DNA of 64,000 nt from Solibacillus sp. R5-41 (GTDB lineage: Bacteria > Bacillota > Bacilli > Bacillales_A > Planococcaceae), in contig NZ_CP024123.1 in assembly GCF_002736105.1 (NCBI RefSeq), positions 2,906,001 through 2,970,000 on the forward strand. Reading direction: 5' to 3'. The position numbers were made by a program, and so were the translations under genes. Shown here in pieces: positions 15,019 through 31,171 of this stretch; positions within the stretch are counted from its first letter, which is position 1, and the number at the start of each line of letters is the position of its first letter. The notes beneath the pieces are model-generated. The model was not told the origin of the DNA and did not search any database. It was given only the letters and a program-made list of their open reading frames with translations.

Positions 15019-15069
15019 ATGTTTCCCTCTGTCTCACATATAGATTAGAAAGTAGATTTTACTCTATGT

Positions 15070-15225: not shown

Positions 15226-15246
15226 ATTAGAGACGGAGGGATTTTT

Positions 15247-15582: not shown

Positions 15583-15710
15583 AATCGTAGCGTTTCTTCC
15601 TTGTCCTTACAATCAGACACTGATAAAATAAGTGACAGTGACGGCTTACAAAAAGAATAGTTGAGTAGGTTCAACTACACATTCAAAAGCCTGAGAAGGA
15701 GAGAATTTTC

Positions 15711-16814
15711 ATGAGTGAAATCGTTCACCGTACAAAAACGCGTCCTGTGCGTGTCGGTAATTTAACAATTGGTGGCAATAACGAAGTCGTAATTCAAAGT
15801 ATGTGTACGACAAAAACACATGATGTTGAAGCGACTGTCGCTGAAATTAAACGTTTAGAAGAAGCTGGATGCCAAATTGTACGCGTAGCTGTTCCTGATG
15901 AGCGTGCAGCAGATGCAATTCCAGAAATAAAAAAACAAATCAATATCCCACTTGTGGCGGATATTCACTTTGACTACAAATTAGCATTAAAAGCAATCGA
16001 AGGCGGCATTGATAAGGTTCGTATTAACCCAGGGAATATTGGACGTCGCGAAAAAGTTGAAGCGGTTGTCAATGCTGCAAAAGCAAAAGGTATTCCAATT
16101 CGTATTGGGGTAAACGCTGGTTCTTTAGAGCGTCATATCCTTGAAAAATATGGCTACCCAACAGCGGATGGAATGGTCGAATCAGCACTTCATCACATAA
16201 AAATTTTAGAAGACTTAGACTTCCACGATATTATTGTGTCGATGAAAGCATCTGACGTAAACCTTGCGATTGAAGCTTATGAAAAAGCAGCTAAAGCATT
16301 CGATTACCCGCTTCACTTAGGGATTACAGAGTCAGGTACATTGTTTGCAGGTACGGTAAAATCCGCAGCTGGTTTAGGTGCCATTTTATCAAAAGGAATT
16401 GGAAACACATTACGTATTTCCCTTTCTGCTGATCCAGTGGAAGAAATCAAAGTAGCTCGTGAATTATTAAAATCATTCGCATTAGCTTCTAATATGGCGA
16501 CGTTAATTTCATGCCCAACTTGCGGACGTATTGAAATTGATTTAATTTCTATTGCCAATGAAGTAGAAGAATATATTTCTAAATTGGATGTGCCTTTAAA
16601 AGTAGCTGTACTTGGCTGCGCAGTAAATGGACCAGGTGAAGCACGTGAAGCAGATATCGGCATTGCTGGTGCACGTGGTGAAGGACTATTATTCATGAAG
16701 GGCAAAACAGTTCGTAAAGTGCCTGAGGAAACTATGGTAGAGGAACTAAAAAAAGAAATTGATAAATTAGCAGATGAAATGGTAAAAAAACGTGAAGCGG
16801 AAGCAAATGCGTAG
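15711..16814 (+). CDS. ispG: 4-hydroxy-3-methylbut-2-en-1-yl diphosphate synthase
   Basis: A 367-residue IspG (GcpE). It reductively converts methylerythritol cyclodiphosphate to HMBPP in the MEP pathway of isoprenoid synthesis. An N-terminal TIM-barrel is followed by the [4Fe-4S] domain with ligands C268, C271, C303 and E310 (CPTCGR and CAVNGPGEA). Length matches the short bacterial form, with the C-terminal acidic/basic tail seen in Bacillales. GAAGGAGAG precedes the ATG. A nucleotidase gene follows after 15 bp, so the two are likely co-transcribed. Confidence 0.97.
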
Positions 16815-16829
16815 ATAGGAGACGAGGAA

Positions 16830-17405
16830 ATGACGACTTTAAAACATCGATTCGGCATTGATATTGACGGGACGGTTACTTGTCCTGCTACGTTACTTCC
16901 ACATATTAATAAGCAATATAACATTAATATGACATTAGCAGATGTAACAGAATATGATTTTTTAAGTGGGTTTCCGTATCCTGTTAACCGTGATGAATTC
17001 CAAGCTTGGTTTAAGGAAAATGAGCCATTTATGTACGAGGTAAGTGAGCTGGCTGAAAATGCGCGGCAAATTTTACAGCAGTGGCAACCGAAGTATGAAC
17101 TGTATTATATTTCAGCTCGCGGGACAAATGTTCTGGAAATTACACAAAACTGGTTCCATGCATTCGATGTGCCATACGATCATATTGAGCTGATTGGCAA
17201 GCATGATAAAATTGCGATGGCCAAAAAGTATCAAGTAGAGGCATTTTTCGAGGATAAGCATGACAACGCTGTGGAAATCGCAGAACAATTAAACATTCCG
17301 GTTATTTTATTTAATACTCCTTATAATCAGCAAACCGTTCCAACTAACGTCATCCGCGTAAATAATTGGTTAGAGGCAAATAATTGGATTTCTAGAAACT
17401 TTTAA
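16830..17405 (+). CDS. yqfW: HAD-family 5'-nucleotidase-like protein, YqfW-like
   Basis: A 191-residue HAD-superfamily hydrolase. The catalytic motif is GIDIDGTV, where the first Asp is the nucleophile; a SARG motif II follows and FFEDKHDNAVEIA is the C-terminal acidic motif. It resembles the NT5C/YqfW group, predicted to dephosphorylate nucleoside monophosphates. B. subtilis yqfW lies near ispG. It overlaps no gene but starts 15 bp after ispG with a GGAGACGAGG site. The exact substrate is not determined from sequence. Confidence 0.8.
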   Translation: MTTLKHRFGIDIDGTVTCPATLLPHINKQYNINMTLADVTEYDFLSGFPYPVNRDEFQAWFKENEPFMYEVSELAENARQILQQWQPKYELYYISARGTNVLEITQNWFHAFDVPYDHIELIGKHDKIAMAKKYQVEAFFEDKHDNAVEIAEQLNIPVILFNTPYNQQTVPTNVIRVNNWLEANNWISRNF

Positions 17406-17418
17406 TACGCAAAGAAAC

Positions 17419-17452
17419 AAACACTTCAAGTTATTTTGAACTTGAGGTGTTT
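17419..17452 (+). terminator. Terminator of ispG-yqfW
   Basis: A 14-bp stem with one G-U pair (17419-17432 with 17439-17452), a 6-nt loop and a following CTTTTTGTTTT lie 14 bp beyond the stop. Confidence 0.85.
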
Positions 17453-17776
17453 CTTTTTGTTTTGGATTTTGTAAATCCAGTTTCGATTAAACTGATAATT
17501 ATTTTTCATATTACTTGTACTCTTTCTTGTTATCTTCCTTCTTTATGAACATAGTAAATTTACACGTGAAAATCAATGTTTAACCTAAGTTAAAAAACTT
17601 TGATATTTGTTGGAAATTTAATTTCTAAAATCACAATTTAATGTGAAAAACCACGAAACTTCCTCATTCGAACACAAAAAAACGCACAATAGCATAGAGC
17701 CATAAAGTGCGTTTCCTTGGTTAACTGTAAGCAAAACATCCTGTGAGAACTGCTTTGTATCCAACTTCATGTTGGC
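17453..17776. terminator. Convergent intergenic region with terminator of the peptide operon
   Basis: This is a gene-free stretch between converging genes. At 17680-17687 / 17707-17714 an 8-bp stem is followed on the minus strand by seven T, fitting a terminator for the operon ending at 17777. The AT-rich remainder (17460-17675) shows nothing recognisable. Confidence 0.6.
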
Positions 17777-18589
17777 CTAAAACAGACTCCCTACCCCAGT
17801 AATCGTCGTAGCTAAGTCTTCTCGGTAATTTTCGTGTGCGGGGTTTAAGCTGTTGATATTCACTTCATTTCCACCAAGTGAAGAATGGATGTAGCAATCA
17901 TCACTAATATACATTGCTACGTGGTCTGGGAAGAAGAGTAAATCCCCTCGTTGCATATCTTTTTGGTCGATGGCCTTTAGCGGGAAGCCGTCGACGATTT
18001 TTGCATCTCGGTAAATATACGCACCATTTAACATGTACGCCATCGAGCAAAGTCCTGAACAATCGATCCCAGCTGGCGTTTTCCCACCCCAGCGATAAGG
18101 AGTCCCTAAATAGCTAAAGGCTGCCTCGACTACTTGTTCACGGAATAAAGCTTGATTTAAAGTGTACACATGCATGCGTTCTTGCACCCAATCACTTCGT
18201 ACATAACCAATATCGCCTGTAACTAAACGCACTTTTGACCAGTTTGTTTCTACGTCGGCATCTTCTATCACATGAATAAAAGAACCACGTGGTAAAGTGA
18301 TAATTTTGGCACTTTGAATGATTGGATTCACTAAAACATCTGCAAAACTTTGAATGACCACATGCTTTGCTTGTTCAATCCATGTGTTTTTTAATGCTTG
18401 ATCGACTTCAATATTTTCCTTTAAGCAATAGCCTTCATAACGATAAAAAGTGCGGACTTTTGCCCATTTCTCATCGACATGTTCCACTATTTCTATCGGC
18501 ATACCGTACAACGCTTCATCCGCTATTTCCGCCTGCGTATTCGGTTCTGCTTGCAAATTAGCAATGGCTACTTTAATAAGAGCATTCAT
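17777..18589 (-). CDS. ykfC: NlpC/P60 endopeptidase (YkfC-like)
   Basis: A 270-residue protein with two SH3-like domains (about residues 1-65 and 75-140) and a C-terminal NlpC/P60 cysteine peptidase. The catalytic Cys is in GIDCSGLCS and the His in FPDHVAMYI. B. subtilis YkfC has this architecture and cleaves between D-Glu and the diamino acid of muropeptides bearing free L-Ala. No signal peptide is visible, so it should act on imported peptides in the cytoplasm. It is the last gene of the operon, 5 bp after the beta-lactamase-fold gene. The product L-Ala-D-Glu would feed the epimerase encoded upstream. Confidence 0.88.
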   Translation of the reverse strand: MNALIKVAIANLQAEPNTQAEIADEALYGMPIEIVEHVDEKWAKVRTFYRYEGYCLKENIEVDQALKNTWIEQAKHVVIQSFADVLVNPIIQSAKIITLPRGSFIHVIEDADVETNWSKVRLVTGDIGYVRSDWVQERMHVYTLNQALFREQVVEAAFSYLGTPYRWGGKTPAGIDCSGLCSMAYMLNGAYIYRDAKIVDGFPLKAIDQKDMQRGDLLFFPDHVAMYISDDCYIHSSLGGNEVNINSLNPAHENYREDLATTITGVGSLF

Positions 18590-18594
18590 TTTAT

Positions 18595-19377
18595 TTAGTT
18601 CCCCCTATCCCTTTGAAAATGCGCATATGCGATTTTTGAAATTTGACCGATGTATTGCCTCGCCTTCTCATTGTCAGTGACCTCTGTCAGGAACACGCCG
18701 ATAAAATAATCCACTTGCTCGGTAAAAACAATGCCGACATCATGGTCGACGGTGTCCAAACCACCCGTTTTATGAGCGATTTTGACATCATCGACTAAAT
18801 ATCGTTTAAGCGATTCATGACTTCGTTGACGCAATAAAATATTTAAGGCCACTTCATTCCATTCATGTGCCAGCAGTTTTCCTGCATAAATTTGATGAAA
18901 TAAATGCTGCATATCACGAGCTGTTGTGACATTATCAAAGCCTTTTTGTTGGCGCTCAAAATCCATCATTTTCCGCTGAACAGACGTCGATTTTAGCCCG
19001 ATTTGCTGAAAATAATAATTTAAAGTCTCTATCCCGATAAAATCAATACACATATTTGTTGCCGTATTATCACTTGTAATAATCATCCACAGCAGTAACT
19101 CATGCAGCGTAGCCGTCTTTTGCTTTTGCTCCGTTAACACGCTAAAATCAACGACATTGTCACTAGTAATCGGTACAACTTGTGAAAGCTGTCCATTCGT
19201 TTTCTCAAGATGATGTAATACCGCCATCAAAATCGGCACTTTAATGACACTCGCACTTGAAAAAACGGATTGTGTATTTTTTTCTATAAGTGATTCATTC
19301 GTTCGATAATCTTGGATGATAACATGCACACGATACGGAATTTGATCAAGTAGCTGCGCCAACTGTTGTTTATACAT
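18595..19377 (-). CDS. Class A beta-lactamase-fold serine hydrolase
   Basis: A 260-residue serine hydrolase. The class A signature order is present: SVIK at residues 43-46, SDN at 102-104, a candidate general-base Glu at about 141 (DFERQQ) and KTG at 203-205. It starts with no signal peptide, so it is probably cytoplasmic, which is unusual for the fold. The start is ATG 19377, 2 bp after the L,D-carboxypeptidase stop; an upstream extension in frame overlaps that gene and is rejected. Being embedded in a peptide-salvage operon suggests D,D- or L,D-peptidase or amidase activity on wall peptides rather than antibiotic resistance. That function is inferred. Confidence 0.8.
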   Translation of the reverse strand: MYKQQLAQLLDQIPYRVHVIIQDYRTNESLIEKNTQSVFSSASVIKVPILMAVLHHLEKTNGQLSQVVPITSDNVVDFSVLTEQKQKTATLHELLLWMIITSDNTATNMCIDFIGIETLNYYFQQIGLKSTSVQRKMMDFERQQKGFDNVTTARDMQHLFHQIYAGKLLAHEWNEVALNILLRQRSHESLKRYLVDDVKIAHKTGGLDTVDHDVGIVFTEQVDYFIGVFLTEVTDNEKARQYIGQISKIAYAHFQRDRGN

Positions 19378-19379
19378 GA

Positions 19380-20318
19380 CTAATCTACGACCGTAATCAT
19401 TTTTGCAGTTGCATCGACCTTCACCGTTTTCCCGAGTGGTAACGACATCGTTGGTAATACATGCCCACAAGTCACATTCATTAAAATCGGAATATTTAAT
19501 GGTGTTAAAATTTCATCCACAAGCGTTTCTAAACGCAAACTATTTTCTGGATGCTCTGGATCTGGAGGACCACAATCCGTCCACCCTCCTAACAAAATGC
19601 CCGCTAAGCCTTCAAGCTTCCCTGTTAACTGCAATTGAGTCAGCATGCGGTCAATGCGCTGTTCATTTTCCTCAACATCTTCTAAAAATAAAATTTTACC
19701 ATGCAAGTTTATCTCATACGGCGTACCTAAAGAGGCCACCACGAGTGTTAAGTTTCCACCTACTAATTGCCCTGTCGCAGTACCCGGAACAACTGTGATC
19801 AAATCCTCACCAGGAGGATTCGCTAATTGATAGTCACTCCACTGTGTATTCGTCACGCTGTTAATGAAATAATCCCAAGTGTAGTCATCCATTTTTTCAC
19901 GAATAAATTCGGTCGATGGCATCGGTGTATGGTACGTAACTAAATCACATTGCTGATTCATCACGATATGTAATGCCGTTACATCACTATATCCTGCGAA
20001 TACTTTTGGATTTTGCTTAATCGTATCCAAATCAAGCATCGGTAATATTTTTGTTGCCCCGTAGCCACCACGAATACTGAAAATCCCATCAATTTCAGGG
20101 TTGGCAAACATCGCATTCAGTTCCCTCGCACGCAATTCGTCACTCCCTGCTAAATACCCATGACGCGCACGACATGTTTCACCTACAACGACCTTAAATC
20201 CTAGTTTTTCAACCGCTTCAATCGCAGGCTGCAGTTTATCCGGTGGCGTCGCTCCAGAAGCACTGACTAACGCTACTGTATCACCTTTTTTTAATGATTT
20301 TGGAATGACCATTGTCAT
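19380..20318 (-). CDS. ykfA: Muropeptide L,D-carboxypeptidase (S66 family, LdcA/YkfA-like)
   Basis: A 312-residue S66 peptidase. The nucleophile region reads [11 protein letters not shown], the catalytic Glu lies in ILFLEDVEE and the His in TCGHVLP. RGGYGA precedes the nucleophile as in LdcA. It removes the terminal D-Ala from tetrapeptides during cytoplasmic wall recycling. It overlaps the upstream ATPase gene by 4 bp, confirming cotranscription. B. subtilis ykfA is linked to ykfB and ykfC in the dpp-ykf region, as here. Confidence 0.9.
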
Positions 20319-21277
20319 ACAAGACTCCCCCTCTTTTCTAATTGTTGACGATAGCTCTCCTGTTCATCACTATTCCCTAAAACAAAATGCCCCGTTTCTA
20401 TTTCCACAAATTCGGGTGGATCTTCCTCATAACGATGCTGCGTTGGATCATACACTTGCAACGTCTTTTGGCGCTCTTTATGCGGATTCGGTTCAGGAAC
20501 TGCTGCCATCAATGCTTTTGTATACGGATGAAGTGGATTATTAAAGAGCTTATCAGTTTCACCGAGCTCAACAATTTTCCCCTTATAAATAACCGCTGTA
20601 CGATCAGTAATAAATCGAACAATCGAAAGATCATGGGCTATAAACAAATACGTTAAATCCTTTTGCTCCTGCAAATTTGAAAGTAAATTTAACACTTGTG
20701 CACGAATTGAAACGTCAAGGGCAGAAATCGGTTCATCCGCCACAATAAATTCCGGATCCATCACAAGCGATCTCGCAATGCCGATACGCTGACGTTGCCC
20801 ACCTGAAAACTCGTGTGGAAACCGAGATGCGAACTCTGGCAATAAGCCGACTTCAAGCAGTGCGTTTTTCACTTTTTGCATGCGTTCTTCTTCAGACTTA
20901 AAGCGCTTATTGCTAATTAACCCTTCTGAAATAATGTAATCCACTTTTGCACGTTCATTGAGTGAAGCACCAGGATCTTGGAAAATCATTTGAATCTTTT
21001 GTGTAATTTCCTTATCCCACGCTTTCGGAATACGTCCGTTTATTTTTTGACCATGAAATAAAATTTCTCCCTTGGAAACGGGGTTAATTCGCATAATCGC
21101 ACGTCCAATTGTCGTTTTACCTGAGCCCGATTCTCCAACTAATCCAAACGTTTCCCCTTTGTAAATATCAAAGCTTACATCATCCACAGCTTTAAACTGT
21201 TTCTTTCCACTGCCAAAAATAATATCAATATTTTTTACTTCGATTAATTTTTCTTTCGTCGGTTTACTCATTGGCAT
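20315..21277 (-). CDS. Oligopeptide/dipeptide ABC transporter ATPase (OppF/DppF type)
   Basis: A 320-residue ABC ATPase. It has Walker [13 protein letters not shown], signature [14 protein letters not shown], Walker [13 protein letters not shown] and the C-terminal oligopeptide extension ([15 protein letters not shown]). It energises peptide import together with the neighbouring OppD-type ATPase. The start is ATG 21277, five bases after GGGAG, overlapping the previous gene by 14 bp; a longer in-frame extension to 21325 lacks a ribosome site. The stop overlaps the L,D-carboxypeptidase start by 4 bp. Confidence 0.92.
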
Positions 21278-22310
21278 AGCGTCTCCCTTCTTCAAAAAAA
21301 GCTTGTAACACTTTAGGAGGCTCAACTTTTGGTGCCTTTAAATCAAGCAACCACGTTCTCGCAAAATGGGTGTCGGTCACTTTAAAGAATGGAGGACGTT
21401 CCACAAAATCAATTTTTAATGCATACTGATTACGCGGCGCAAAGGCATCCCCTTTTATTTCCTTGAATAAATTCGGCGGTGTCCCTTTTATCGAATATAG
21501 GTCTTCCCCCTTTTCCCCTAATTGAGGAAGCGAAGAAATTAATGCCCATGTGTAAGGATGTTTGGCATTAAAGAATACTTCATCCGTTTTTCCGACTTCA
21601 ATAATGTCTCCTGCATACATGACAGCAATGCGGTCCGCTACTTTTGCAACGACACCAAGGTCATGCGTAATATATATTGTCGACAACCCGTATTTTTGCT
21701 GTAAGTTCGTTAATAACTGTAATATTTGCGCCTGTATCGTAACATCTAGCGCCGTCGTTGGTTCATCACAAATTAATACGTCTGGGTTACAAGCGACCGC
21801 AATTGCTATAACAATCCTTTGACGCATCCCACCTGAAAACTCATGTGGATACTGTTTATAGCGTCGTTCTACTTCGTGAATGCCGACATCTCGTAATAGC
21901 TGCAATGTTTTCTCGTACGCTTCTTTGCCCTTTAAATTTTGATGTAGCACGACACTTTCTTCGATTTGCTTCCCTACTGTTTTCAATGGATTTAAGCTCG
22001 TCATCGGATCTTGCGTAACCATCGCGATTTGCTTGCCGCGAATTTTTAACCAATCCTTTTCCGTCTTGAATTTCGTTAAATCATGCCCGTTATAGGAAAT
22101 TCTCCCCGAATCAATATAGCCGTTTTTATCTAGCAAGCCCATAATCGACTTCACTAACACCGATTTCCCCGAACCTGATTCCCCTACGATTGCCAAGCTT
22201 TCTCCTTTATATAAATCAAGTGAAATATCTCGAATGGCCGTTAATGTTTGACCGCGCAATTTAAATTTTATGACTAAATTTTTTATAGATAATATAGGCT
22301 GTTGTTCCAT
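21264..22310 (-). CDS. Oligopeptide/dipeptide ABC transporter ATPase (OppD/DppD type)
   Basis: A 348-residue ABC ATPase. Walker A is [12 protein letters not shown], the signature [13 protein letters not shown] and Walker [13 protein letters not shown]. The C-terminal peptide-transporter extension ([14 protein letters not shown]) continues longer than in its partner. It pairs with the OppF-type ATPase as a heterodimer. AAGGGGTGG seven bases before ATG 22310 sets the start, 13 bp after the permease stop. Confidence 0.92.
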
Positions 22311-22323
22311 CGTTCGCCACCCC

Positions 22324-23298
22324 TTACACGTGATTTTTTGGATCTGCAGCATCTGCAAATGAATTACCGATTATATAAAAGGCAATTGTAATAACACTTA
22401 GGACAATACTAGGGAAAATTAATTGATAGCGTAAATCAGGTGACATCATCAGTACGCGCCCTTCATTAATTAAGTTTCCTAATGACGGTACACTTACTGG
22501 TAGCCCTAGTCCGATATACGTTAAAAATACTTCTGCCCCAATAGCAAATGGCACCGCTAAGCTCATGCGTAACATAATAACCGAAATTAAATACGGCAAT
22601 AAGTTTTTCAAAATAATACGATATCCGGGTGTTCCTAATGTTTTCGATGCTAAGTTATACTCACGGTCACGTAAAATTACAATCTGATTTCGTAAAAAGC
22701 GTGCCATTTCTACCCAGCCCGTAATACACATTGCAATAATAATTGTCGAAACACTTGGTCTTAAAATATACGACATTAATATAAGGACGATTGTTGTTGG
22801 AATATTATCGACGATGTTATAAAGCTGCGTAAATGGCATTTCGAGTTTCCTAGAGAAGCCCCATAACGCACCAATCGTAAAGCCGACAATTACTTCAATC
22901 ATTGCAACGACAAAGCCAATGTATAATGAAGTTCGTGTCCCTTCCCAAATGCGCGACCATAAATCCTGCCCGATGGAGTTCGTTCCAAACCAATATTCCT
23001 CATTCGGTGCTACATTTCGGTCTTGCATGCCTGTATCTGGATTAATATAAATCTCAGTAGGTGACTTTTGATTCGGTAAATACGGCTGAATAAGCGTAAA
23101 GCCGATAATAAAGACAACCATAAACAATAAGAAGACTGCTATTTTATTTTTTAGAAAAGAGTGCCATGTAGAACGCCAATAGGAATAATTTGAGTAGGCC
23201 GTTTCTTCTGCCTTTGTATCATCCGCCATAGCAAAGTCAAATAATGTTTCATTCGATTTATCCGAAATATTCTGAATCTCTTTTGTATATAAGCCCAT
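22324..23298 (-). CDS. Peptide ABC transporter permease (OppC/DppC type)
   Basis: A 324-residue permease. It has a cytoplasmic N-terminus of about 45 residues, one membrane segment, a long exported loop with the NSIGQDLWSRIWEGTR motif and five more spans. The coupling motif (ASKTLGTPGYRIILKNLLP region) is characteristic of OppC-type proteins. It shares one base with the stop of the OppB-type gene, so translation is coupled. It forms half of the peptide channel. Confidence 0.92.
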   Translation of the reverse strand: MGLYTKEIQNISDKSNETLFDFAMADDTKAEETAYSNYSYWRSTWHSFLKNKIAVFLLFMVVFIIGFTLIQPYLPNQKSPTEIYINPDTGMQDRNVAPNEEYWFGTNSIGQDLWSRIWEGTRTSLYIGFVVAMIEVIVGFTIGALWGFSRKLEMPFTQLYNIVDNIPTTIVLILMSYILRPSVSTIIIAMCITGWVEMARFLRNQIVILRDREYNLASKTLGTPGYRIILKNLLPYLISVIMLRMSLAVPFAIGAEVFLTYIGLGLPVSVPSLGNLINEGRVLMMSPDLRYQLIFPSIVLSVITIAFYIIGNSFADAADPKNHV

Positions 23299-24242
23299 TA
23301 GCGTACACTGTCTCCTTTCCCTAATTTAATTCGAGGGTCTACAACGGCCATTAATAAGTCACCTAAAATTAAGCCAATAATTCCGAGTGATGAAAAGAAG
23401 ATAACGAGCCCTTGTACAACTGTGTTATCTTGACGTTGAATCGCATCTACTAATAGCCCACCCATTCCTGGAATCGAATACAATGATTCAATATAAATCG
23501 AGCCGGTAATCGTAAATAAAATGGTAGCTGGCAAATATTGCGCCATAGGAATAAAGGCGTTTCGCAATACATGGCGGAACATAATTGTGCGTTCCTTCAC
23601 GCCCTTTGCACGAGCTAGTTTAATATAATCTTTATTTAGCTCATCCACCATGTAACGTCTCATCCACATCGCATAGGACGCAATCGGACCAAGTGCCATT
23701 GAAATGAGCGGTAAGATCCAACTAATTGGATTGTATTCATCAAATAACATCGGCCAGCCGAACCAACCCGTAACATACATTTGAATCATAAGAAAATATA
23801 CCATCGCCGGAACAGCCACAATGAATACAATATAGCCTGTCCCTAATCGATCTAGCCACCGCCCTTTAAACTGGGCCATTAAAATACCAAGTGGTACTCC
23901 GACTAATAAAGAAAGCGCAACGGCACCTAATCCAAATAAAATCGAATACATCATTTTGTCTTCTATAATATCTACTACTGGTACATCCGTACGATACGTA
24001 ACGGATTTCCCTAAATCCCCTTGGAATAAACCTTTATAAAAATTCCCCAATTGTACAATTAATGGATCTCTTAACCCTAAATTAGTTAAGTAAATTTCCT
24101 GTTGAGCCTCTGACATTTTTTCAGCCGCTGCCCCTAAATAACCTTCCTCAGGCATTAATCGTAATAGGGAGAAAACAATTGTGATAATGATAAATAGTGT
24201 GAAAATGGATTGTACTAATCTTTTTCCTATGTATTTCAGCAT
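23298..24242 (-). CDS. Peptide ABC transporter permease (OppB/DppB type)
   Basis: A 314-residue permease of the OppB class. It starts with the usual YIGKRLVQSIFTLF helix and has the DPLIVQLGNFYKGL loop and a coupling segment (YIKLARAKGVKERTIMFRHVLRNAF region). There are about six membrane spans. GAGGAGG precedes the ATG. It lies 145 bp after the binding-protein gene, across a stem-loop, and one base overlaps the following permease. Confidence 0.92.
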   Translation of the reverse strand: MLKYIGKRLVQSIFTLFIIITIVFSLLRLMPEEGYLGAAAEKMSEAQQEIYLTNLGLRDPLIVQLGNFYKGLFQGDLGKSVTYRTDVPVVDIIEDKMMYSILFGLGAVALSLLVGVPLGILMAQFKGRWLDRLGTGYIVFIVAVPAMVYFLMIQMYVTGWFGWPMLFDEYNPISWILPLISMALGPIASYAMWMRRYMVDELNKDYIKLARAKGVKERTIMFRHVLRNAFIPMAQYLPATILFTITGSIYIESLYSIPGMGGLLVDAIQRQDNTVVQGLVIFFSSLGIIGLILGDLLMAVVDPRIKLGKGDSVR

Positions 24243-24323
24243 CGTAAGCTCCTCCTCGTTACTATTTTTCTTTTGTTGGTTCTCTACATAACGTATGCGC
24301 TATTGTCTACTAAAATAAGAAAA

Positions 24324-24352
24324 GAGATGCAGAAAATATTTTCTGTCATCTC
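24324..24352 (-). terminator. Intercistronic stem-loop after the peptide-binding gene
   Basis: An inverted repeat (GAGATG plus the perfect 16-bp palindrome 24330-24345 plus CATCTC, one bulged base) is followed on the minus strand by TTTTCTTATTTT. It is probably a leaky terminator or mRNA-stabilising structure that lets the binding protein be made in excess over the permeases. Confidence 0.6.
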
Positions 24353-24387
24353 CTGTCCTTACAACGAAATCAAATCATTCATTGTGA

Positions 24388-26238
24388 TTAGTTTGAAGCA
24401 TTTGCTAAAGCTTCAGCACGTTCTTTTTCCCATGCTTCTTTAGCAGATTTATATTCTTCATTGCTCATTGGCTTTTCTAGGAGTGTTTGACCTTTAAATT
24501 TCTCTGATGTTACACCAAATGGTGAGTATTGTGATTCGAATGGATTTAATTTAGATGCGACATAGCCACCGCCACCTACTGCGTATGGGATAACGAATGC
24601 TTCTTCAATTAAAAAGGCTTCTGCTTTTGCAAATAACTCATAACGTTTTGCAGGATCTACTTCTACTTTTGCTGCATCTACTAAGTTTTGGTATGTGTTT
24701 TTACCGTTTGCTTCTTGGTAACCTTCAGCAAGCTCTGGCTTATTATATGTTCCACCTTCTGTAAATGGATCTGTGTAAGTTGATGGATCTGCAAAGTCAG
24801 GGCCCCAGTTTGCTTCGATGATTGAGAATTTACCTGGACGACGAACTTCACCTAAGAAGCCAGTTGCTGGACCTGCTTCAATCACAATGTCTACATAGTC
24901 TGTACCTAATAATTTTTCCACTTGTTGCTCAACAACTTGAGAACGATTTGCCCACTCTGGACTACCTGAGTTATAAGGCATTACTACTTTAACTGGGAAT
25001 GTTGCTTTTCCAGCTAATGCTGCCATTGCTTTTTCTTTATACTCTGCAGCTAAATCTGCATTAAATGAATCATTGTTTGTAATCGCTTTTAATGGCTCTA
25101 ATTGTGTATAGTCCACACCACTAACATCCACGAAGTTTTTTGGCGTTACCGTATTTGTTACTAAGTCTTTTGGATTGTATGGTTCCATCGTTAACAACGC
25201 GGATACACGGTCTAACGCATGGTAAATTGATTTACGGAAATCTTTATTATTTACTGCTATTTTCCAGTTTTCCGGCTCAAATTGTGCATCATATTGTGGA
25301 TTGAAGTTTAATGCATAGAAATACGTATAGAAATTGTTTGTATTTTGACGCACTAAGTTTTTCTTGTCCTCATCATTTAACCATTGATCTAAAATCGAAG
25401 TTGGTACACTTGTTGCATCAATTTCACCACGTAAGAATAACTCTGGTGCTACAGTCGCAGCTTCTTTATTGTACTTGTATCGAATGCGGTCAATTTTCAC
25501 TTGATCTTTATCCCAGTAAGTTGCGTTTTTCACTAATACACGCTCATTTTGCGGCTCGAATTTGTCTAAAATATACGCGCCATTGTATAGGAAGTTTTCA
25601 CGTGTCGTACCAAAACCTTCCCCTTTTTCAGCTAAAAATGCGCCGTTTACTGGGAAGAAACATACATAGTTTAACATGGATAAGAAATAAGGCGTTGATC
25701 CCTCTAATGTGTATTCAAGTGTGTATTCATCTAATGCTTTTACACCAACTTGTGAGAAATCTGTTATTTCACCTGTATTAAAAGCATTACCATTTTTAAC
25801 AACCGTGGCAATCCAAGATGTTGATGATTCATTTTTTGCATCTAATACATAATTTAATCCGTCTACGAAATCTTGTGCGACTACATCGGCATATTCTTTG
25901 CCGTCATGTGATACCCACTTTACACCTTCACGAATTTTAAATGTCCAAACCGTCGCATCCGCATTTGACTCCCAGCTTTCTGCAAGACTTGGTTTTACAA
26001 TGCCGTACTCATCATATTCGATCAGACCGTCTACTAAGTTTGCTGCAACTGCAAATTCATTTGTTTCTGACGTTTTTAAGTAGTTGAGTGTTTTGATTTC
26101 ACCAGAATAAACCGTCTTATACTCAACTGGCTTTGAATCTGATTTTGAATCCCCTTTTGTGTCTGAGTCTGCTTTATCACTACAAGCGGCTAAAACAAGC
26201 ACAAACATACATGTTAATAACAATAAATACTTTCTCAC
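24388..26238 (-). CDS. Peptide-binding lipoprotein (OppA/DppE/MppA-like)
   Basis: A 616-residue extracytoplasmic solute-binding protein, family 5. The signal peptide has lipobox LAAC with the lipidated cysteine at residue 19, then an Asp/Ser/Lys-rich linker. The family 5 signature region appears at about residues 85-110 (SLAESWESNADATVWTFKIR). It captures peptides for the adjacent permease. In this operon the likely ligands are muropeptide stem peptides, as for B. subtilis DppE, but this is inferred from neighbours. The start is GTG with GGGGG seven bases upstream. It lies 52 bp after the epimerase gene. Confidence 0.9.
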   Translation of the reverse strand: MRKYLLLLTCMFVLVLAACSDKADSDTKGDSKSDSKPVEYKTVYSGEIKTLNYLKTSETNEFAVAANLVDGLIEYDEYGIVKPSLAESWESNADATVWTFKIREGVKWVSHDGKEYADVVAQDFVDGLNYVLDAKNESSTSWIATVVKNGNAFNTGEITDFSQVGVKALDEYTLEYTLEGSTPYFLSMLNYVCFFPVNGAFLAEKGEGFGTTRENFLYNGAYILDKFEPQNERVLVKNATYWDKDQVKIDRIRYKYNKEAATVAPELFLRGEIDATSVPTSILDQWLNDEDKKNLVRQNTNNFYTYFYALNFNPQYDAQFEPENWKIAVNNKDFRKSIYHALDRVSALLTMEPYNPKDLVTNTVTPKNFVDVSGVDYTQLEPLKAITNNDSFNADLAAEYKEKAMAALAGKATFPVKVVMPYNSGSPEWANRSQVVEQQVEKLLGTDYVDIVIEAGPATGFLGEVRRPGKFSIIEANWGPDFADPSTYTDPFTEGGTYNKPELAEGYQEANGKNTYQNLVDAAKVEVDPAKRYELFAKAEAFLIEEAFVIPYAVGGGGYVASKLNPFESQYSPFGVTSEKFKGQTLLEKPMSNEEYKSAKEAWEKERAEALANASN

Positions 26239-26290
26239 ACAAAAACCCCCTATTTTCTCTTTTCATATACGCTTTGCAAGTTAATAACCC

Positions 26291-27367
26291 TTACAAAGTT
26301 TCTATTAAAAACCCTAATCCTGGCTGATCGGTCATTTGAATTTTTTCGCCTTCAAAAATCGGTCCGCCATCAACTGGATCTTCAACACAAAGACTCGGTC
26401 CATCTAAATCCACCATTGTGATATTTTTGTTTGCCGCTGCAAAATGAGCTGCGGCACTAACACTAATTTTCGTTTCCAGCATGCATCCAATCATGCATTC
26501 TATCCCACTCGCTTCTGCAATATTACATAGCTTTTGCGCTTGAAAGATACCCCCGGTTTTCATTAGCTTAATATTGATTAAATCCGCAGCACGCATGTGG
26601 ATGAGTGACAGTGCTTCCTTTGGTGAAAAAACACTCTCATCCGCTAATATAGGTGTTCGCGTATGATTTGTTACATAGTGCATGCCCGATAGATCACTGT
26701 AATGAACAGGCTGCTCTACCAACTCAATATTGACTCCTTTATCCTCCAGCTGACCGATAATTCGAACCGCTTCCTTTGGCGTCCATCCTTGGTTTGCATC
26801 TACCCGTAAAACGACATCCGGTCCAACGGCTTTTCGAATCGCAACAACACGATCCACATCCGTTTGTGCATCTTTTCCGACCTTTACTTTTAATATTGAA
26901 AAACCACGATGTACGGCTTGTAAGCTATCTCGTACCATTTCTTCGCTATCATTAACACTAATCGTAATATCCGTCGTCAATTGCTGGCGAAACCCACCTA
27001 ATATTTGGTAAAGTGGTGCTTTATATTTTTTTGCCCATAAATCATAAAGTGCCATATCTACCGCTGCCTTTGCACTCGTATTTTTATATAGGCTATGCTC
27101 TATGCGGTCCAATATGCTAGCTAGTTCTTCAATTTCCATTCCGATAATGATCGGTGCAAAAACATGCTCAATTGCATGTGTAATCGATGCAAGCGTTTCT
27201 CCCGTAATGACCACGGTCGGAGCTGCTTCCCCCATACCTACTTGCCCATCATCCGTGTAAATATGCACCGCAACGTTTTTTATTGTATGCACGGTACGTA
27301 ACGCGGTTTTAAATGGTGTGATGAGTGGTGCTTCCACTATGCCGACTTTTATTTTTGTAATTTTCAT
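26291..27367 (-). CDS. ykfB: Dipeptide epimerase (L-Ala-D/L-Glu epimerase type)
   Basis: A 358-residue enolase-superfamily enzyme of the muconate-lactonising subgroup. The catalytic lysine pair K160-V-K162 is followed by metal ligands D190, E218 and D243 (RVDANQGW, VEQP, ADES) and the second lysine in INIKLMKTGG. These match the B. subtilis YkfB layout. It interconverts L-Ala-D-Glu and L-Ala-L-Glu so that wall dipeptides can be hydrolysed by ordinary peptidases. It starts 17 bp after dppA with an AGGTGAG site. Some enolase relatives use other dipeptides; the context supports L-Ala-D/L-Glu. Confidence 0.9.
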   Translation of the reverse strand: MKITKIKVGIVEAPLITPFKTALRTVHTIKNVAVHIYTDDGQVGMGEAAPTVVITGETLASITHAIEHVFAPIIIGMEIEELASILDRIEHSLYKNTSAKAAVDMALYDLWAKKYKAPLYQILGGFRQQLTTDITISVNDSEEMVRDSLQAVHRGFSILKVKVGKDAQTDVDRVVAIRKAVGPDVVLRVDANQGWTPKEAVRIIGQLEDKGVNIELVEQPVHYSDLSGMHYVTNHTRTPILADESVFSPKEALSLIHMRAADLINIKLMKTGGIFQAQKLCNIAEASGIECMIGCMLETKISVSAAAHFAAANKNITMVDLDGPSLCVEDPVDGGPIFEGEKIQMTDQPGLGFLIETL

Positions 27368-27384
27368 GTTCTCACCTGCTGCAT

Positions 27385-28179
27385 TTAAGTTAAAAACTGT
27401 AAAATTCGTAAAACTTCATAAAAATCAGTTGTTTCAAATAACACGATATTATGTGCTTTAAATTTTGCACCTGGATAAAATGAATTGCGATACGCTTTAA
27501 TATGATCTTTGTAAATAAGTTCAAGTTCAAATTTCGCTGGAAGCTCTACTTGGATTTTTTCACGTTCCACATGCATTGCTTGTTCGATTAAGTTCTTTGT
27601 TTCTTTTAAAGTTTTTTGTGGGCTTACATTAATCGTAGCCGAGCCAATTCCATCCTTTGTTGCATATGTGACAATTTGGTCATTTATTTTTGCAATATGC
27701 TCTGTTAATGCCTGATCCCCACTGACAAAGGCAACCGGTACTTTATGGAGTGCGGCAGCATATGTATTAATCATAAATTCACTTGCATACTGCCCATTAA
27801 TTTTCACATCAGCAATCATGCTTAATGTGTGTGCTAATGGATTGCGTTCGCTACCTCCCTCACTGTGGTACCCAATGAAAATAGCGCGATCAAATGTTGC
27901 ATCTAATCCTGCGACCATGCACATCGGATCCATTGTCCAACCACGAATGATTTTAACGTTTTCAGGTAAATCCTCTAAAAGAATATTGCGTGCTGAATCA
28001 TGCGCATCTTTTAGTAAAATTTCCGTCGCGCCCCCTGCAACCGCACCTTCAATTGCAGCAAGTACTTCCTTTGTCATTTGCTTTTGAAAATAATGATAAT
28101 CCGCTAAGTTTAACTCCGTTTCATTCCAATGTGTCGTACCTGTAATCCCTTCAATATCTGCACTAATGTATACTTTCAT
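27385..28179 (-). CDS. dppA: D-aminopeptidase DppA (M55)
   Basis: A 264-residue zinc peptidase. Conserved ligands are D8 and E10 (ISADIEG), H60 (KDAHD), H105 (GYHSEGG) and E134 (ASEF); H117 is in the position of the proposed catalytic His. B. subtilis DppA hydrolyses D-Ala-D-Ala and D-Ala-Gly-Gly. It is cytoplasmic, with no signal peptide. The start overlaps the upstream D,D-dipeptidase gene by 4 bp. Two enzymes able to open D,D-dipeptides therefore stand side by side. Confidence 0.93.
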   Translation of the reverse strand: MKVYISADIEGITGTTHWNETELNLADYHYFQKQMTKEVLAAIEGAVAGGATEILLKDAHDSARNILLEDLPENVKIIRGWTMDPMCMVAGLDATFDRAIFIGYHSEGGSERNPLAHTLSMIADVKINGQYASEFMINTYAAALHKVPVAFVSGDQALTEHIAKINDQIVTYATKDGIGSATINVSPQKTLKETKNLIEQAMHVEREKIQVELPAKFELELIYKDHIKAYRNSFYPGAKFKAHNIVLFETTDFYEVLRILQFLT

Positions 28180-28922
28180 TTGTATCGATACTCCTTTAAT
28201 TCGTTTTTTTCAATCGTCGCAATGATGGCTCCGTAAAAGGCTGCCGGTTCATGTGCTTTCCTTGCCCACGTCACATTTCCAAAATCATAATGCCACCATT
28301 CCTCTGAATAATTTTTAAAGCCTGCACTAGTCATGCAATTAAACAGCAGTCTGCGATTTTTGAATGCTTCCGGATTTTCATCAGCATTTGTCTCAAAATA
28401 AGCTGTTGCAGATTTCGAGTTTGTTTCATCAAAGGCTGTCCCTAAGTCGAGTGGGTTTCCGAATGAATCACCCAACGTTAAATCAACGGCCCCTCCCGTT
28501 AAATGGGGTGCCGGGTAGCCTTCTTCAATGCTTGGATAGGCCACATATTTTAATGTTTCTTTTTGTACTTCTTGTTCGCTCCAACTAGGATTGGTCAAGG
28601 CAATTTCTTGCTGCACTTGATCAAATAAAAACTGTTGAACTTGTAAAGGTCGATAGCCGTCATACACGATGAAGCTATAGGATTTGGGTAACTCAGCTAA
28701 TGCCTGATTTAATCGCTCCGTTACACCTTGGCGTAAATAAATTGATTGTAAACTATTCGGTATTTTTTGATCATAATAGCTGGATCGAATAAATAATCGA
28801 TTTTTTATCGACTTCAACGCAACTAACGGTTCTCGTGTTTCCTTAATGACTGGTTTTTTATCAGCTGAATGTAGATGTTGTATTGGTTTTAATAAATTTT
28901 CTGAAATTGTTGTGCACCTCAT
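28176..28922 (-). CDS. D-alanyl-D-alanine dipeptidase (VanX/DdpX family, M15D)
   Basis: A protein of about 248 residues of the VanX family. The zinc ligands are the His and Asp of APHLTGGAVDLTLG and the His of EEWWHYDFG, with the preceding Glu as the catalytic base. VIYDGYRPLQVQ is the conserved VanX block. It hydrolyses D-Ala-D-Ala released from pentapeptides. No van ligase or sensor genes are near, so a catabolic (DdpX-like) role is more likely than vancomycin resistance. The ATG at 28922 lacks a clear ribosome site; GTG 28925 is an alternative. A CodY-like box lies within its first codons. It is the first gene of the 11-kb operon. Confidence 0.88.
   Translation of the reverse strand: MRCTTISENLLKPIQHLHSADKKPVIKETREPLVALKSIKNRLFIRSSYYDQKIPNSLQSIYLRQGVTERLNQALAELPKSYSFIVYDGYRPLQVQQFLFDQVQQEIALTNPSWSEQEVQKETLKYVAYPSIEEGYPAPHLTGGAVDLTLGDSFGNPLDLGTAFDETNSKSATAYFETNADENPEAFKNRRLLFNCMTSAGFKNYSEEWWHYDFGNVTWARKAHEPAAFYGAIIATIEKNELKEYRYK
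28895..28909. promoter_or_regulatory. CodY-box-like sequence at the head of the peptide operon
   Basis: AATTTTCTGAAATTG matches the CodY consensus AATTTTCWGAAAATT at 13 of 15 positions. It lies 14-28 bp inside the first gene. CodY represses the dpp operon of B. subtilis from a site close to the promoter, so this is a plausible operator; alternatively the true start codon is downstream of it. Confidence 0.5.
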
Positions 28923-29065
28923 CACTTAAGAAAATATAAAAAATTTAGAAGTTTTAGAGTTTTCAGTTATTTTATTAAATTATCATATCTTTGACGATTT
29001 TGGAAGTTTTTTCTTTAAATTTGTCCAATGATGGTAGAAATACCTGTTTACATTTAATTATCCTT

Positions 29066-29110
29066 AAAGAGGGGAAGTTTATTAGATTGAATTCCCGAAC
29101 TTCCCCCTTT
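29066..29110. terminator. Terminator after the P1-family peptidase gene
   Basis: The inverted repeat AAAGAGGGGAAGTT (29066-29079) / AACTTCCCCCTTT (29098-29110) lies just beyond the stop at 29114 and ahead of the operon start at 28922. It separates the peptidase from the peptide operon. Confidence 0.7.
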
Positions 29111-29113
29111 TAA

Positions 29114-30160
29114 TTATTCAAAAATAAATTGTTCGACTTGATTTCCGTGGCGCCCAATTGTTGTTTTGGCTTGTGCTAACGAATTGATGATGGCTTCTTC
29201 TGTCGCTTCGGCTGCCGCCGTAAATAATTGATTCATAATCGGGTGATCTTCCCGGATTTGCACACGAGATTCAATGTGCTCTGCTATTTGATGTGGGATT
29301 TCATGTGCCGTGGTAAAGCCGATGACAATATCACCACTACCATTAGAAAAATGACTACCTGTTCGTCCAAGCCCGATACCACAACGTTTTATAACACGCT
29401 TCAGTTGTCGACTACTTAGTGGTGCATCCGTTGCAAGTACGATCATTATCGACCCATCTGTAGGTGCAATGGTAGAATTTTCTTGTGTTGAATTTTTCTT
29501 ATAGTGTTCTTTCAAAAATTCACTACTCGTACCGAAATTACTCAGTACAAGGCAACCAATTGTATAAGATTCACTGCTATCTTCTAGTGCAACCACACGA
29601 GAAGATGAGCCAATTCCCCCTTTATAGCCAAAGCAAATCATTCCTTTCCCTGCTCCTACTGCTCCTTCTTCTGCCGTTTCTTCCATTGCACATTTGATTG
29701 CTTCCATCGCGTGCTCTGGGGTCACGGGGCAATGGCGAATGGAATTTAAATAACTATCATTACATTCCCCTACTACTATATTGACTGTGCCGGTTGTTAA
29801 CCCAATTTCTTCATTTTGACTTAATAAATAATTGAGCGTTCCTTGAGTTACAGCAGGCACTCCAAATGTATTCGTTAACATAATCGGTGACTCAATTACG
29901 CCCAGCTCATTCACTTGCACGAGCCCCGTTGTTTTTCCAAAACCATTCAAAACATAACTCGCTGCCGTTACTTTTTGACGAAACAAATTTCCACCATGTG
30001 GCAATATCGCCGTGACACCTGTACAAGCAACATCACCATTTTCATTAATCGGATGATCTAAAGTGACATGACCAACCTTTACACCAGCTACGTCTGTAAT
30101 GCAATTCTTATTCCCGGGCTTTAGCTGCCCAATTTTTATACCATACTCACTTACCTTCAT
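29114..30160 (-). CDS. P1 (DmpA/BapA) family aminopeptidase
   Basis: A protein of about 348 residues of the DmpA family, self-cleaving N-terminal nucleophile hydrolases. The processing site is in KGGIGSSSRV, where cleavage before the first Ser would create the nucleophile. GAVGAGKGM precedes it as in the family. DmpA-type enzymes release N-terminal D- or L-residues or beta-amino acids from small peptides. The start is ATG 30160, 11 bases after GGAG; upstream GTG/TTG codons sit on the ribosome site. It stands next to the peptide-salvage operon and may contribute to it, but a terminator separates them. Confidence 0.9.
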   Translation of the reverse strand: MKVSEYGIKIGQLKPGNKNCITDVAGVKVGHVTLDHPINENGDVACTGVTAILPHGGNLFRQKVTAASYVLNGFGKTTGLVQVNELGVIESPIMLTNTFGVPAVTQGTLNYLLSQNEEIGLTTGTVNIVVGECNDSYLNSIRHCPVTPEHAMEAIKCAMEETAEEGAVGAGKGMICFGYKGGIGSSSRVVALEDSSESYTIGCLVLSNFGTSSEFLKEHYKKNSTQENSTIAPTDGSIMIVLATDAPLSSRQLKRVIKRCGIGLGRTGSHFSNGSGDIVIGFTTAHEIPHQIAEHIESRVQIREDHPIMNQLFTAAAEATEEAIINSLAQAKTTIGRHGNQVEQFIFE

Positions 30161-30206
30161 AAAATTCAACACTCCTTTATCCTATGTATTTGGAAATCTA
30201 GTTAAA

Positions 30207-30239
30207 TTAGGAGCTACCATCAAATGTGGCAACTCCTAA
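30207..30239 (-). terminator. Weak terminator-like hairpin
   Basis: TTAGGAG (30207-30213) pairs with CTCCTAA (30233-30239), with partial pairing inside. It lies downstream of the cstA remnant on the minus strand and is followed by ATTTAA only. Confidence 0.4.
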
Positions 30240-30296
30240 AATGATGAATCGTTTATTTTGTAACGTAATCAGATACGTCTATATCTAACTCTAAAT

Positions 30297-30572
30297 CTAC
30301 GCCACGCTTCTAAATGCCGCCATAAAAAAGATGGTAACTGTTACTAATGTGAGGACAGACCCAACGCTATACGAAATCGATAATGACTGACCAAAGCCCA
30401 TATTAGTCTCATAAATAATATACACAAAACACATACTCGTCATAAATATTGCTGGAATTGTCGCAACTCCAATGATTTTTATGCTTTATTCCCCAAATAC
30501 TTTCTCGACAAATTTACCGCACGTGAAATATCCAACAATTAACAGAATAATACAAACCAAAAATGTAATCAT
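30297..30572 (-). pseudogene. cstA-like carbon starvation transporter remnant, internally deleted
   Basis: Reading the minus strand from ATG 30572 gives an N-terminus with GYFTCGKFVEKVFGE that resembles the start of CstA-family peptide/pyruvate transporters. A TAA stop follows at codon 29 (30488-30486). The same frame continues without shift into a membrane segment with IPAIFMTSMCFVYIIYE and a C-terminal span ending in AAFRSVA before the stop at 30297. This reads like the beginning and end of a protein of several hundred residues joined in frame with the middle lost. It covers 92 codons including both stops. The assignment rests on recognised motifs, not a search. Confidence 0.6.
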
Positions 30573-30605
30573 TCTCTCACCCTTACTAATTTTTTTATTA
30601 TTCAC

Positions 30606-30663
30606 ACTATATCAACACTGTTATATAACATCAAGTTTTTTTAAGGAACTATATAACAGTGTT
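30606..30663 (-). promoter_or_regulatory. Promoter with paired inverted operators for the cstA remnant
   Basis: On the minus strand TTGATG (30634-30629) and TATAGT (30611-30606) are spaced by 17 bp. A perfect 14-bp inverted repeat frames it: AACACTGTTATATA at 30614-30627 lies in the promoter spacer and its complement at 30650-30663 lies upstream of -35. The left copy also extends into the 12-bp palindrome TGTTATATAACA. Two identical inverted sites over a promoter are typical of repressor operators; the repressor is not encoded next to it. Confidence 0.55.
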
Positions 30664-30735
30664 AACTCATAAAATTTAATGTATAACTATGTAAACCAAC
30701 AACAAAATATGATTCGCTTGTCTTCAAAACAAAAA

Positions 30736-30762
30736 AAAGCGTCCCTTAAGTAGGTGCGCTTT
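30736..30762 (-). terminator. Terminator of the small ORF
   Basis: AAAGCG (30736-30741) pairs with CGCTTT (30757-30762), with further CCT/AGG pairing inside; on the minus strand eight T follow. It lies 74 bp beyond the stop of the 42-residue ORF. Confidence 0.6.
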
Positions 30763-30835
30763 CTAGTCAGCTTTCGAGAAATAGGTGTAGTGGTTGAGCA
30801 ACTATCATCTTCTTGAACGCAAAATTTCTCATGTA

Positions 30836-30964
30836 TTAAATATCTATAATTCCTCTTGACCAACGATCTACGAAGCTTTCAAATGTGATCCCATAACGGT
30901 TATACACTTCATGATAGACGAAATAAGTCCCCAGTTTATCTAACATTTCATCATTAATTCTCAT
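30836..30964 (-). CDS. Small hypothetical protein, 42 residues
   Basis: A short ORF starting MRINDEMLDKLGTYFVYHE and ending in WSRGIIDI. It has an AAAGGG site about eight bases before the ATG and a terminator downstream, so it looks like a real small gene. The product is soluble and aromatic-rich, with no membrane segment. I do not recognise the family. A further 29-codon frame ends 19 bp upstream (30984-31073) but has no ribosome site. Confidence 0.5.
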   Translation of the reverse strand: MRINDEMLDKLGTYFVYHEVYNRYGITFESFVDRWSRGIIDI

Positions 30965-31171
30965 CGTATCAACCCTTTCTTTTTCAACTTTGAGCGATAA
31001 TGTCGTGCTCCCCATTTCGATTCGCTGTTAGTTCTAACATACCCGTAATTCCCTTTTTTAATACAAGCTTCATTGTTGTAAATCGTTCACAAACATGCCC
31101 GAAATCATCCTGTTACAGTGCGTTCATTTTAGTAAGATGAATGTATACATATGAACGATGGAGGGACTGTT

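What the first reader, a model, noticed from the sequence alone, without database searches (positions are those of the whole stretch)
17777..28922. Eleven-kb peptidoglycan-peptide salvage operon combining dpp, ykf, VanX-like and beta-lactamase-fold genes
Ten genes in one orientation, mostly with 4-bp or shorter spacing, encode in order a D-Ala-D-Ala dipeptidase (VanX/DdpX), DppA, a dipeptide epimerase, an OppA-type binding protein, OppB/C/D/F, an L,D-carboxypeptidase, a class A beta-lactamase-fold hydrolase and an NlpC/P60 endopeptidase. B. subtilis has dpp-ykf genes for this; here a second D,D-dipeptidase and the beta-lactamase-fold enzyme are built in. Together they could import stem peptides and take them fully apart to usable amino acids. 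The pathway is inferred.
Basis: partly seen in the sequence, partly recalled or inferred. Interest (0 to 1): 0.72.

Follow-up and report, generated by a model that had tools for sequence, protein, structure and literature searches.

The report
Cell-wall peptide salvage operon, infC-like start
A row of eleven bacterial genes appears to import and dismantle cell-wall peptides; it is a variant of a known Bacillus system, but its first gene, whose enzyme could attack the cell's own wall precursor, seems to use a weak start codon of the kind best known from one translation-factor gene.

Summary
The operon is real. Eleven genes (not ten) run on the minus strand, 28925 to 17777, in a Solibacillus-group genome, ending in a good terminator.

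Gene order is kept in 40 of 40 Planococcaceae loci fetched (chosen for carrying the Bla-like gene). By a crude check the enzymes lack export signals and the binding protein is a lipoprotein: import, then cytoplasmic breakdown. It is a variant of dpp-ykf.

The 'beta-lactamase' is unlikely to be one: the catalytic omega-loop glutamate position is Met in 86 of 89 sequences, and it resembles the D,D-peptidase PBP-A. Relatives lie beside cell-wall-peptide genes in 33 of 48 loci outside the family; more distant paralogues do so on the same strand in 0 of 20. Six Cytobacillus/Neobacillus/Bacillus loci carry it at the end of a dpp-ykf series.

New: the vanX-like first gene apparently starts at AUU/AUA/AUC behind a Shine-Dalgarno sequence in 40 of 48 distinct copies, the layout of infC. 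I propose this throttles an enzyme that would hydrolyse the cell's own D-Ala-D-Ala. No activity or translation start was measured.

The parts
29114..30172 (-). S58 (DmpA/BapA-type) aminopeptidase, conserved upstream neighbour; by my reading ATG 30160 fits the ribosome site better than GTG 30172
   Evidence: Pfam S58 372 bits; PDB relatives 2drh, 1b65 (DmpA, name recalled), beta-peptidyl aminopeptidase 3n2w; upstream in 39 of 40 loci
29064..29113 (-). terminator-like hairpin after S58, suggesting a separate transcript
   Evidence: fold -18.5 kcal/mol, z -2.68, 4 of 200 shuffles as good
28969..28997 (-). promoter-like hexamers upstream of the vanX-like gene (weak: 9 of 12; 18 sites in the region against 44 in shuffles)
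28915..28920 (-). Shine-Dalgarno GAGGTG of the vanX-like gene
28905..28907 (-). proposed ATT (AUU) start codon of the vanX-like gene
28176..28907 (-). VanX-like D,D-dipeptidase (M15D), 243 aa from ATT; the ORF opens at GTG 28925
27385..28179 (-). DppA, M55 D-aminopeptidase; overlaps vanX-like stop by 4 nt
   Evidence: Pfam M55 283 bits; B. subtilis DppA 1hi9 E 1.2e-24
26291..27367 (-). L-Ala-D/L-Glu epimerase (YkfB type)
   Evidence: L-Ala-D/L-Glu epimerase 1jpm 394 bits, E 6.6e-117
24388..26238 (-). oligopeptide-binding lipoprotein
   Evidence: SBP_bac_5 196 bits; lipobox; closest solved AliB, AliC, AliD, AmiA; DppE and MppA further down
23298..24242 (-). OppB-type permease
   Evidence: BPD_transp_1 130 bits
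22324..23298 (-). OppC-type permease
   Evidence: BPD_transp_1 and OppC_N; NCBIfam OppC 330 bits, below its 370 cut-off
21264..22310 (-). OppD-type ATPase
   Evidence: ABC_tran and oligo_HPY
20315..21277 (-). OppF-type ATPase
   Evidence: ABC_tran and oligo_HPY
19380..20318 (-). S66 L,D-carboxypeptidase (LdcA/YkfA/MccF family)
   Evidence: S66 and S66C 137 and 126 bits; best PDB matches are MccF
18595..19377 (-). class A beta-lactamase-fold serine enzyme without the omega-loop glutamate; predicted cytoplasmic D,D-peptidase
17777..18589 (-). NlpC/P60 gamma-D-Glu-diamino-acid endopeptidase, DPP VI/YkfC type, two SH3 stretches, no signal peptide seen
   Evidence: best PDB match named dipeptidyl-peptidase VI, 3npf
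17671..17722 (-). terminator hairpin at operon end
   Evidence: fold -35.2 kcal/mol for 17670-17776, z -3.95, 0 of 200 shuffles as good

Best explanation
A cell-wall stem-peptide uptake and catabolism operon, a Planococcaceae variant of Bacillus dpp-ykf. Oligopeptides released from peptidoglycan are caught by the binding lipoprotein and imported by OppBCDF (inferred). [quoted passage not shown] LdcA removes the next D-Ala, NlpC/P60 cuts L-Ala-gamma-D-Glu from the diamino acid, the epimerase makes L-Ala-L-Glu for ordinary dipeptidases, and DppA and the VanX-like enzyme split D-Ala-D-Ala (all inferred from families). Because a cytoplasmic D-Ala-D-Ala dipeptidase also attacks the cell's own wall precursor, the vanX-like gene is held at low translation by an infC-like initiation site, a Shine-Dalgarno followed by AUU, AUA or AUC. 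The sequence pattern is shown; the throttle and its reason are inferred.
For: Families and solved relatives; only the binding protein has a lipobox and no enzyme has a hydrophobic N-terminus by a crude scan; order kept in 40 of 40 loci; in L156 (G032) the whole SBP-OppBCDF-LdcA-Bla block is missing from the locus while S58, VanX, DppA, Epi and NlpC remain, so transport, LdcA and Bla behave as one module. Bla-like partner genes in 33 of 48 loci outside the family against 0 of 20 on the same strand for paralogues. Start codon: 31 of 36 Shine-Dalgarno-placed vanX starts are non-canonical (12 more genes had no placed start under that rule) against 22 of 393 for the other 11 genes; 40 of 48 distinct genes carry ATT, ATA or ATC there under a looser ribosome-site rule, and 18 of those 40 have no ATG/GTG/TTG after the in-frame stop; differences by codon position are 45/27/76 just after the proposed start (16 pairs), 24/30/24 upstream (10 pairs); infC shows the same layout in 24 of 24 readable loci of 30 fetched, and 5 of 6 stand-alone VanX paralogues have ATG or TTG.
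Against: No activity, transcript or start site was measured. LdcA's nearest solved relatives are MccF immunity proteins, and the binding protein's are general oligopeptide binders, so specificity for stem peptides is untested. The VanX-like gene is missing in 9 of 40 loci and the epimerase in 6 of 40. In the window itself GTG 28925 and ATG 28922 are in frame before the ATT, though without a ribosome site of their own; 22 of the 40 genes have such upstream codons. 7 of 48 vanX genes do have ATG or TTG at the site, so a weak codon is not required everywhere. In 3 of 48 (L041, L067, L082) a canonical codon further downstream also has a ribosome site. The sequences are related, some nearly identical at the site, so the counts are not independent events. 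The same start-codon rule also gave 9 non-canonical picks for LdcA, so it has some error.
Confidence: 0.7

Rival explanations
1. An ordinary peptide-nutrition operon for general peptides, including D-amino-acid ones, with no special tie to peptidoglycan.
For: Binding protein closest to the oligopeptide binders AliB, AliC, AliD and AmiA; S66 closest to MccF in the PDB.
Against: The epimerase (394 bits to the L-Ala-D/L-Glu epimerase 1jpm) and a DPP VI-like NlpC/P60 point to cell-wall substrates, and the set is kept together.
Confidence: 0.15
2. The Bla-like enzyme is a true beta-lactamase that protects the cell.
For: Class A fold; NCBIfam class A model 136 bits, under its 200 cut-off.
Against: Omega-loop glutamate position is Met in 86 and Gly in 3 of 89 sequences; no export signal by a crude scan; sits in catabolic operons.
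Confidence: 0.05
3. The Bla-like enzyme does another step, for example hydrolysis of the epimerase's L-Ala-L-Glu or of bridge amino acids, not D,D-carboxypeptidase work.
For: Outside the family the epimerase (25 of 48 loci) and NlpC/P60 (24 of 48) are its commonest partners, the epimerase in several loci without NlpC or LdcA.
Against: Fold neighbours with known function near the top of the list are the D,D-peptidase PBP-A and beta-lactamases, which act on D-Ala-D-Ala or its antibiotic mimics (PMC11189452, passages).
Confidence: 0.3
4. The vanX-like gene simply starts at GTG/ATG upstream or at a canonical codon downstream, and the AUH codon is chance.
For: Upstream canonical codons exist in the window and in 22 of the 40 AUH genes; a downstream canonical codon with a ribosome site exists in 3 of 48.
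Against: 18 of 40 have none after the in-frame stop; upstream ones mostly lie inside or before the Shine-Dalgarno; codon bias begins after the AUH codon; infC in the same family looks the same.
Confidence: 0.15

Closest known systems
Bacillus subtilis dppABCDE-ykfABCD operon
   Same: D-aminopeptidase DppA, peptide ABC importer, YkfA (S66), YkfB epimerase, YkfC NlpC/P60; described in passages of PMC2954226 and PMC3305447; gene order recalled
   Different: Here another gene order, a divergent DppA (90 bits to 1hi9), an added VanX-like gene and Bla-like gene, a short DPP VI-type NlpC/P60, an S58 neighbour. Six Cytobacillus/Neobacillus/Bacillus loci carry a dpp-ykf series plus the Bla-like gene
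Dipeptidyl-peptidase VI of Bacillus sphaericus
   Same: cytoplasmic NlpC/P60 found during sporulation, specific for murein peptides with N-terminal L-Ala (PMC2954226, passages)
   Different: the passages I read give no operon context; identity with the window protein not measured
PBP-A of Thermosynechococcus
   Different: PBP-A belongs to a cyanobacterial family with an additional N-terminal domain; the window protein has no visible export signal and sits in a catabolic operon
VanX / DdpX
   Same: M15D sequence and best fold match, metal and active-site residues kept (residue roles recalled)
   Different: far below the NCBIfam VanX (48 of 320 bits) and PRK10178 D-Ala-D-Ala dipeptidase (81 of 176) cut-offs; extra N-terminal segment
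infC, S. aureus cvfC1 and ccpN start sites
   Same: conserved AUU or AUA start behind an extended Shine-Dalgarno; cvfC1 is the first gene of an operon (PMC13009471, passages)
   Different: none of these encodes a D,D-dipeptidase

Membership tests
dpp-ykf stem-peptide operon | D-aminopeptidase, peptide importer, S66, epimerase and NlpC/P60 genes together | tested here: met
dpp-ykf stem-peptide operon | binding protein specific for murein tripeptide (as DppE) | not testable with these tools
   DppE is a more distant match (142 bits) than AliB (260 bits)
dpp-ykf stem-peptide operon | CodY control (recalled for B. subtilis dpp) | tested here: inconclusive
   2-mismatch site at 28895-28909, but 10 sites in window against 15.2 expected; 5 of 40 loci have a 2-mismatch site matched by at most 3% of shuffles
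class A beta-lactamase | SxxK, SDN and KTG motifs | tested here: met
class A beta-lactamase | omega-loop catalytic glutamate (Glu166) | tested here: not met
   Met at the aligned position; 86 Met and 3 Gly of 89 sequences, window included
class A beta-lactamase | export signal | tested here: not met
   crude hydropathy check only
PBP-A-like D,D-peptidase | class A fold with a non-acidic residue at the glutamate position | tested here: met
PBP-A-like D,D-peptidase | D-Ala release from pentapeptide | not testable with these tools
   needs enzyme assay
VanX/DdpX D,D-dipeptidase (M15D) | HxxxxxxD and ExxH metal motifs and DGYRP arginine | tested here: met
   H141, D148, E209, H212, R92; H212 replaced by Tyr in 1 of 11 (L056); roles recalled
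VanX/DdpX D,D-dipeptidase (M15D) | NCBIfam equivalog score | tested here: not met
   48 of 320 and 81 of 176 bits
infC-like non-canonical initiation | Shine-Dalgarno 3-10 nt (mostly 6-8) before AUU/AUA/AUC, conserved | tested here: met
   40 of 48 distinct genes; infC control
infC-like non-canonical initiation | measured initiation there and response to IF3 | not testable with these tools
   needs Ribo-Ret or reporter

The most novel reading that the evidence does not exclude
In Planococcaceae a cytoplasmic D-Ala-D-Ala dipeptidase gene is under infC-type translational restraint: a conserved AUU/AUA/AUC start with a strong Shine-Dalgarno makes its synthesis depend on initiation fidelity (IF3), so that salvage of D-Ala-D-Ala is coupled to growth state and the cell's own wall precursor is spared. 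Beside it, an apparently unrecognised family of cytoplasmic PBP-A-like D,D-peptidases, marked by an omega-loop RKM(M/L)DF signature, is a standard part of Gram-positive stem-peptide catabolism.
Probability: 0.45. Interest if true: 0.68.

Novelty: new variant of a known kind. Interest (0 to 1): 0.52.

Why it matters
Stem-peptide recycling in Gram-positive bacteria is less mapped than in E. coli. The operon gives a nearly complete predicted pathway in one likely transcript, puts a sporulation enzyme described long ago in B. sphaericus into a plausible genetic context, and points to a cytoplasmic penicillin-binding-type enzyme whose Pfam family name says beta-lactamase. The start-codon pattern makes a testable case of how a cell can afford an enzyme that destroys its own cell-wall precursor.

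Tried and rejected
CodY box: a near match at the vanX-like start is no more than chance for the window and is not kept at that place in relatives. Rfam: nothing in 14000-33000 at gathering scores. Viral contigs: no relative of the Bla-like protein. Simple promoter scan: fewer sites than in shuffles, so the promoter is only suggestive. Two of the 20 control loci (L158, L173) do have epimerase and NlpC (L173 also LdcA and DppA) in the fetched stretch, but on the opposite strand; they count against a clean contrast. The 48 non-family loci are part of the best 80 of 266 relatives, some on short contigs; one (L118) had no separate Bla call in the script, so its strand was not required, though its partner genes lie on the strand of the match. 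The omega-loop motif test (33 of 38 with the motif have partner genes, 0 of 10 without) was made after seeing the data, on related sequences. Five motif-bearing loci (L122, L129, L131, L143, L145) have no partner genes. In one search, LdcA shows 9 non-canonical picks, most likely artefacts of the spacing limits, so the method has some error. The peptidoglycan type of Solibacillus and Lysinibacillus (L-Lys with D-Glu or D-Asp bridge) is recalled; one search found no paper. The idea that S58 removes beta-linked bridge residues is speculation from recalled BapA chemistry. What I found in print rests, open-licence PMC papers only; six papers were seen in passages, the rest as listings.
Full report
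What is there. Five of ten junctions are 4 bp or less or overlap; the largest gap is 145 bp before OppB. A strong hairpin with a T tract follows NlpC/P60, and a weaker terminator-like hairpin separates the block from an S58 aminopeptidase gene upstream. No Rfam family matches at gathering scores.

Conservation. Of 200 family genomes, 122 have a Bla-like match at E 0.001 and 61 (own included, my count from the listing) at 50% identity or more. I fetched 40 of the other 60. All 40 keep DppA and the SBP-OppBCDF-LdcA-Bla-NlpC order on one strand; S58 is upstream in 39, the epimerase is present in 34, the VanX-like gene in 31, one of them in two pieces. Six genomes without the epimerase here still have homologues elsewhere, at 35-38% identity at best, so whether the step is covered there is open. 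One genome of the genus without a Bla-like match (G032; locus L156) lacks the whole SBP-to-Bla block at this locus and keeps S58, VanX, DppA, epimerase and NlpC/P60. The own genome has one M55 gene and one PF01427 gene, both in this operon, two S66 genes, four NlpC/P60 genes and five PF13354 matches, one of each in the operon.

Predicted work of the parts. Only the binding protein has a lipobox; none of the enzymes has a hydrophobic N-terminus by a crude scan, so the enzymes are read as cytoplasmic. The epimerase is very close to the L-Ala-D/L-Glu epimerase 1jpm (394 bits; that 1jpm is from B. subtilis is recalled). NlpC/P60 has two SH3 stretches and its best matches are chains named dipeptidyl-peptidase VI; [quoted passage not shown] DppA is a divergent relative of B. 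subtilis DppA. The S66 protein is closest to MccF in the PDB, though it carries the RGGYG stretch that I recall as LdcA-like. The binding protein is closest to general oligopeptide binders. B. subtilis DppE binds murein tripeptide (PMC10009517, passages). The pathway is thus well supported as a set and inferred step by step.

The start of the vanX-like gene. In the window the only ribosome site near the start is GAGGTG at 28915-28920, followed 7 nt later by ATT at 28905-28907; GTG 28925 and ATG 28922 lie before it without a site of their own. In 48 distinct genes (window included; distinct by the neighbouring dppA sequence, some still nearly identical at the site) the codon so placed is ATT 19, ATA 17, ATC 4, ATG 5, TTG 2, with none in L050, although the script preferred a canonical codon where both lay at an accepted distance from the same site; in 18 of the 40 non-canonical cases no ATG, GTG or TTG exists between the in-frame stop and that codon. 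With one stricter rule for all genes, 31 of 36 placed vanX starts are non-canonical (12 more had no placed start) against 22 of 393 for the other eleven genes. Differences between relatives show a third-position excess immediately after the codon (45/27/76 in 16 pairs) and none upstream (24/30/24 in 10 pairs) (small numbers). A canonical codon downstream with a ribosome site was found in 3 of 48. infC in the same family has the same layout, GGAGGTGG then ATT, in 24 of 24 loci that the script could read of 30 (the script's picks: ATT 23, ATC 1), while 5 of 6 stand-alone VanX paralogues have ATG or TTG at a ribosome site. In S. aureus, conserved AUU and AUA starts with extended Shine-Dalgarno sequences limit initiation of cvfC1 and ccpN, and infC starts with AUA (PMC13009471, passages); IF3 represses such starts (PMC5472188, passages). 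A cytoplasmic D-Ala-D-Ala dipeptidase would compete with wall synthesis, which gives a reason for restraint; this is inference, and agrees with the gene being the one most often missing.

Verdict. The points that go beyond it are the glutamate-less PBP-A-like partner enzyme and the infC-like start of the vanX-like gene.

Noticed in passing
window 29114-30172: S58 DmpA/BapA-type aminopeptidase kept directly upstream in 39 of 40 loci; might remove bridge residues from imported peptides (speculation).
   Followed up: partly
L156 (G032): The locus lacks the whole SBP-OppBCDF-LdcA-Bla block; S58, VanX, DppA, epimerase and NlpC/P60 remain. Whether an importer or S66 gene lies elsewhere in that genome was not checked.
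   Followed up: partly
L050 and L056: vanX-like gene in two pieces in L050; in L056 a metal-site histidine is Tyr. Signs that the gene is dispensable.
   Followed up: no
L056, L058, L061, L062, L064, L071: Epimerase gene missing between DppA and the binding protein; only homologues of 35-38% identity at best elsewhere in these genomes.
   Followed up: partly
L050, L060, L063, L066, L068, L070 upstream of operon: Recurring AATTRTCTAAAAATT-like element (one mismatch more in L060), in L060, L063, L066 and L070 at 36-51 nt before the first gene; a possible CodY-type or other operator.
   Followed up: no
L106 8809-9906; L109 12069-13064: Related clostridial clusters carry a C39-like peptidase or an M19 dipeptidase near the Bla-like gene.
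   Followed up: no
L158, L173: Paralogous Bla-fold genes lie near ykf-type genes on the opposite strand in one other Planococcaceae genus.
   Followed up: no
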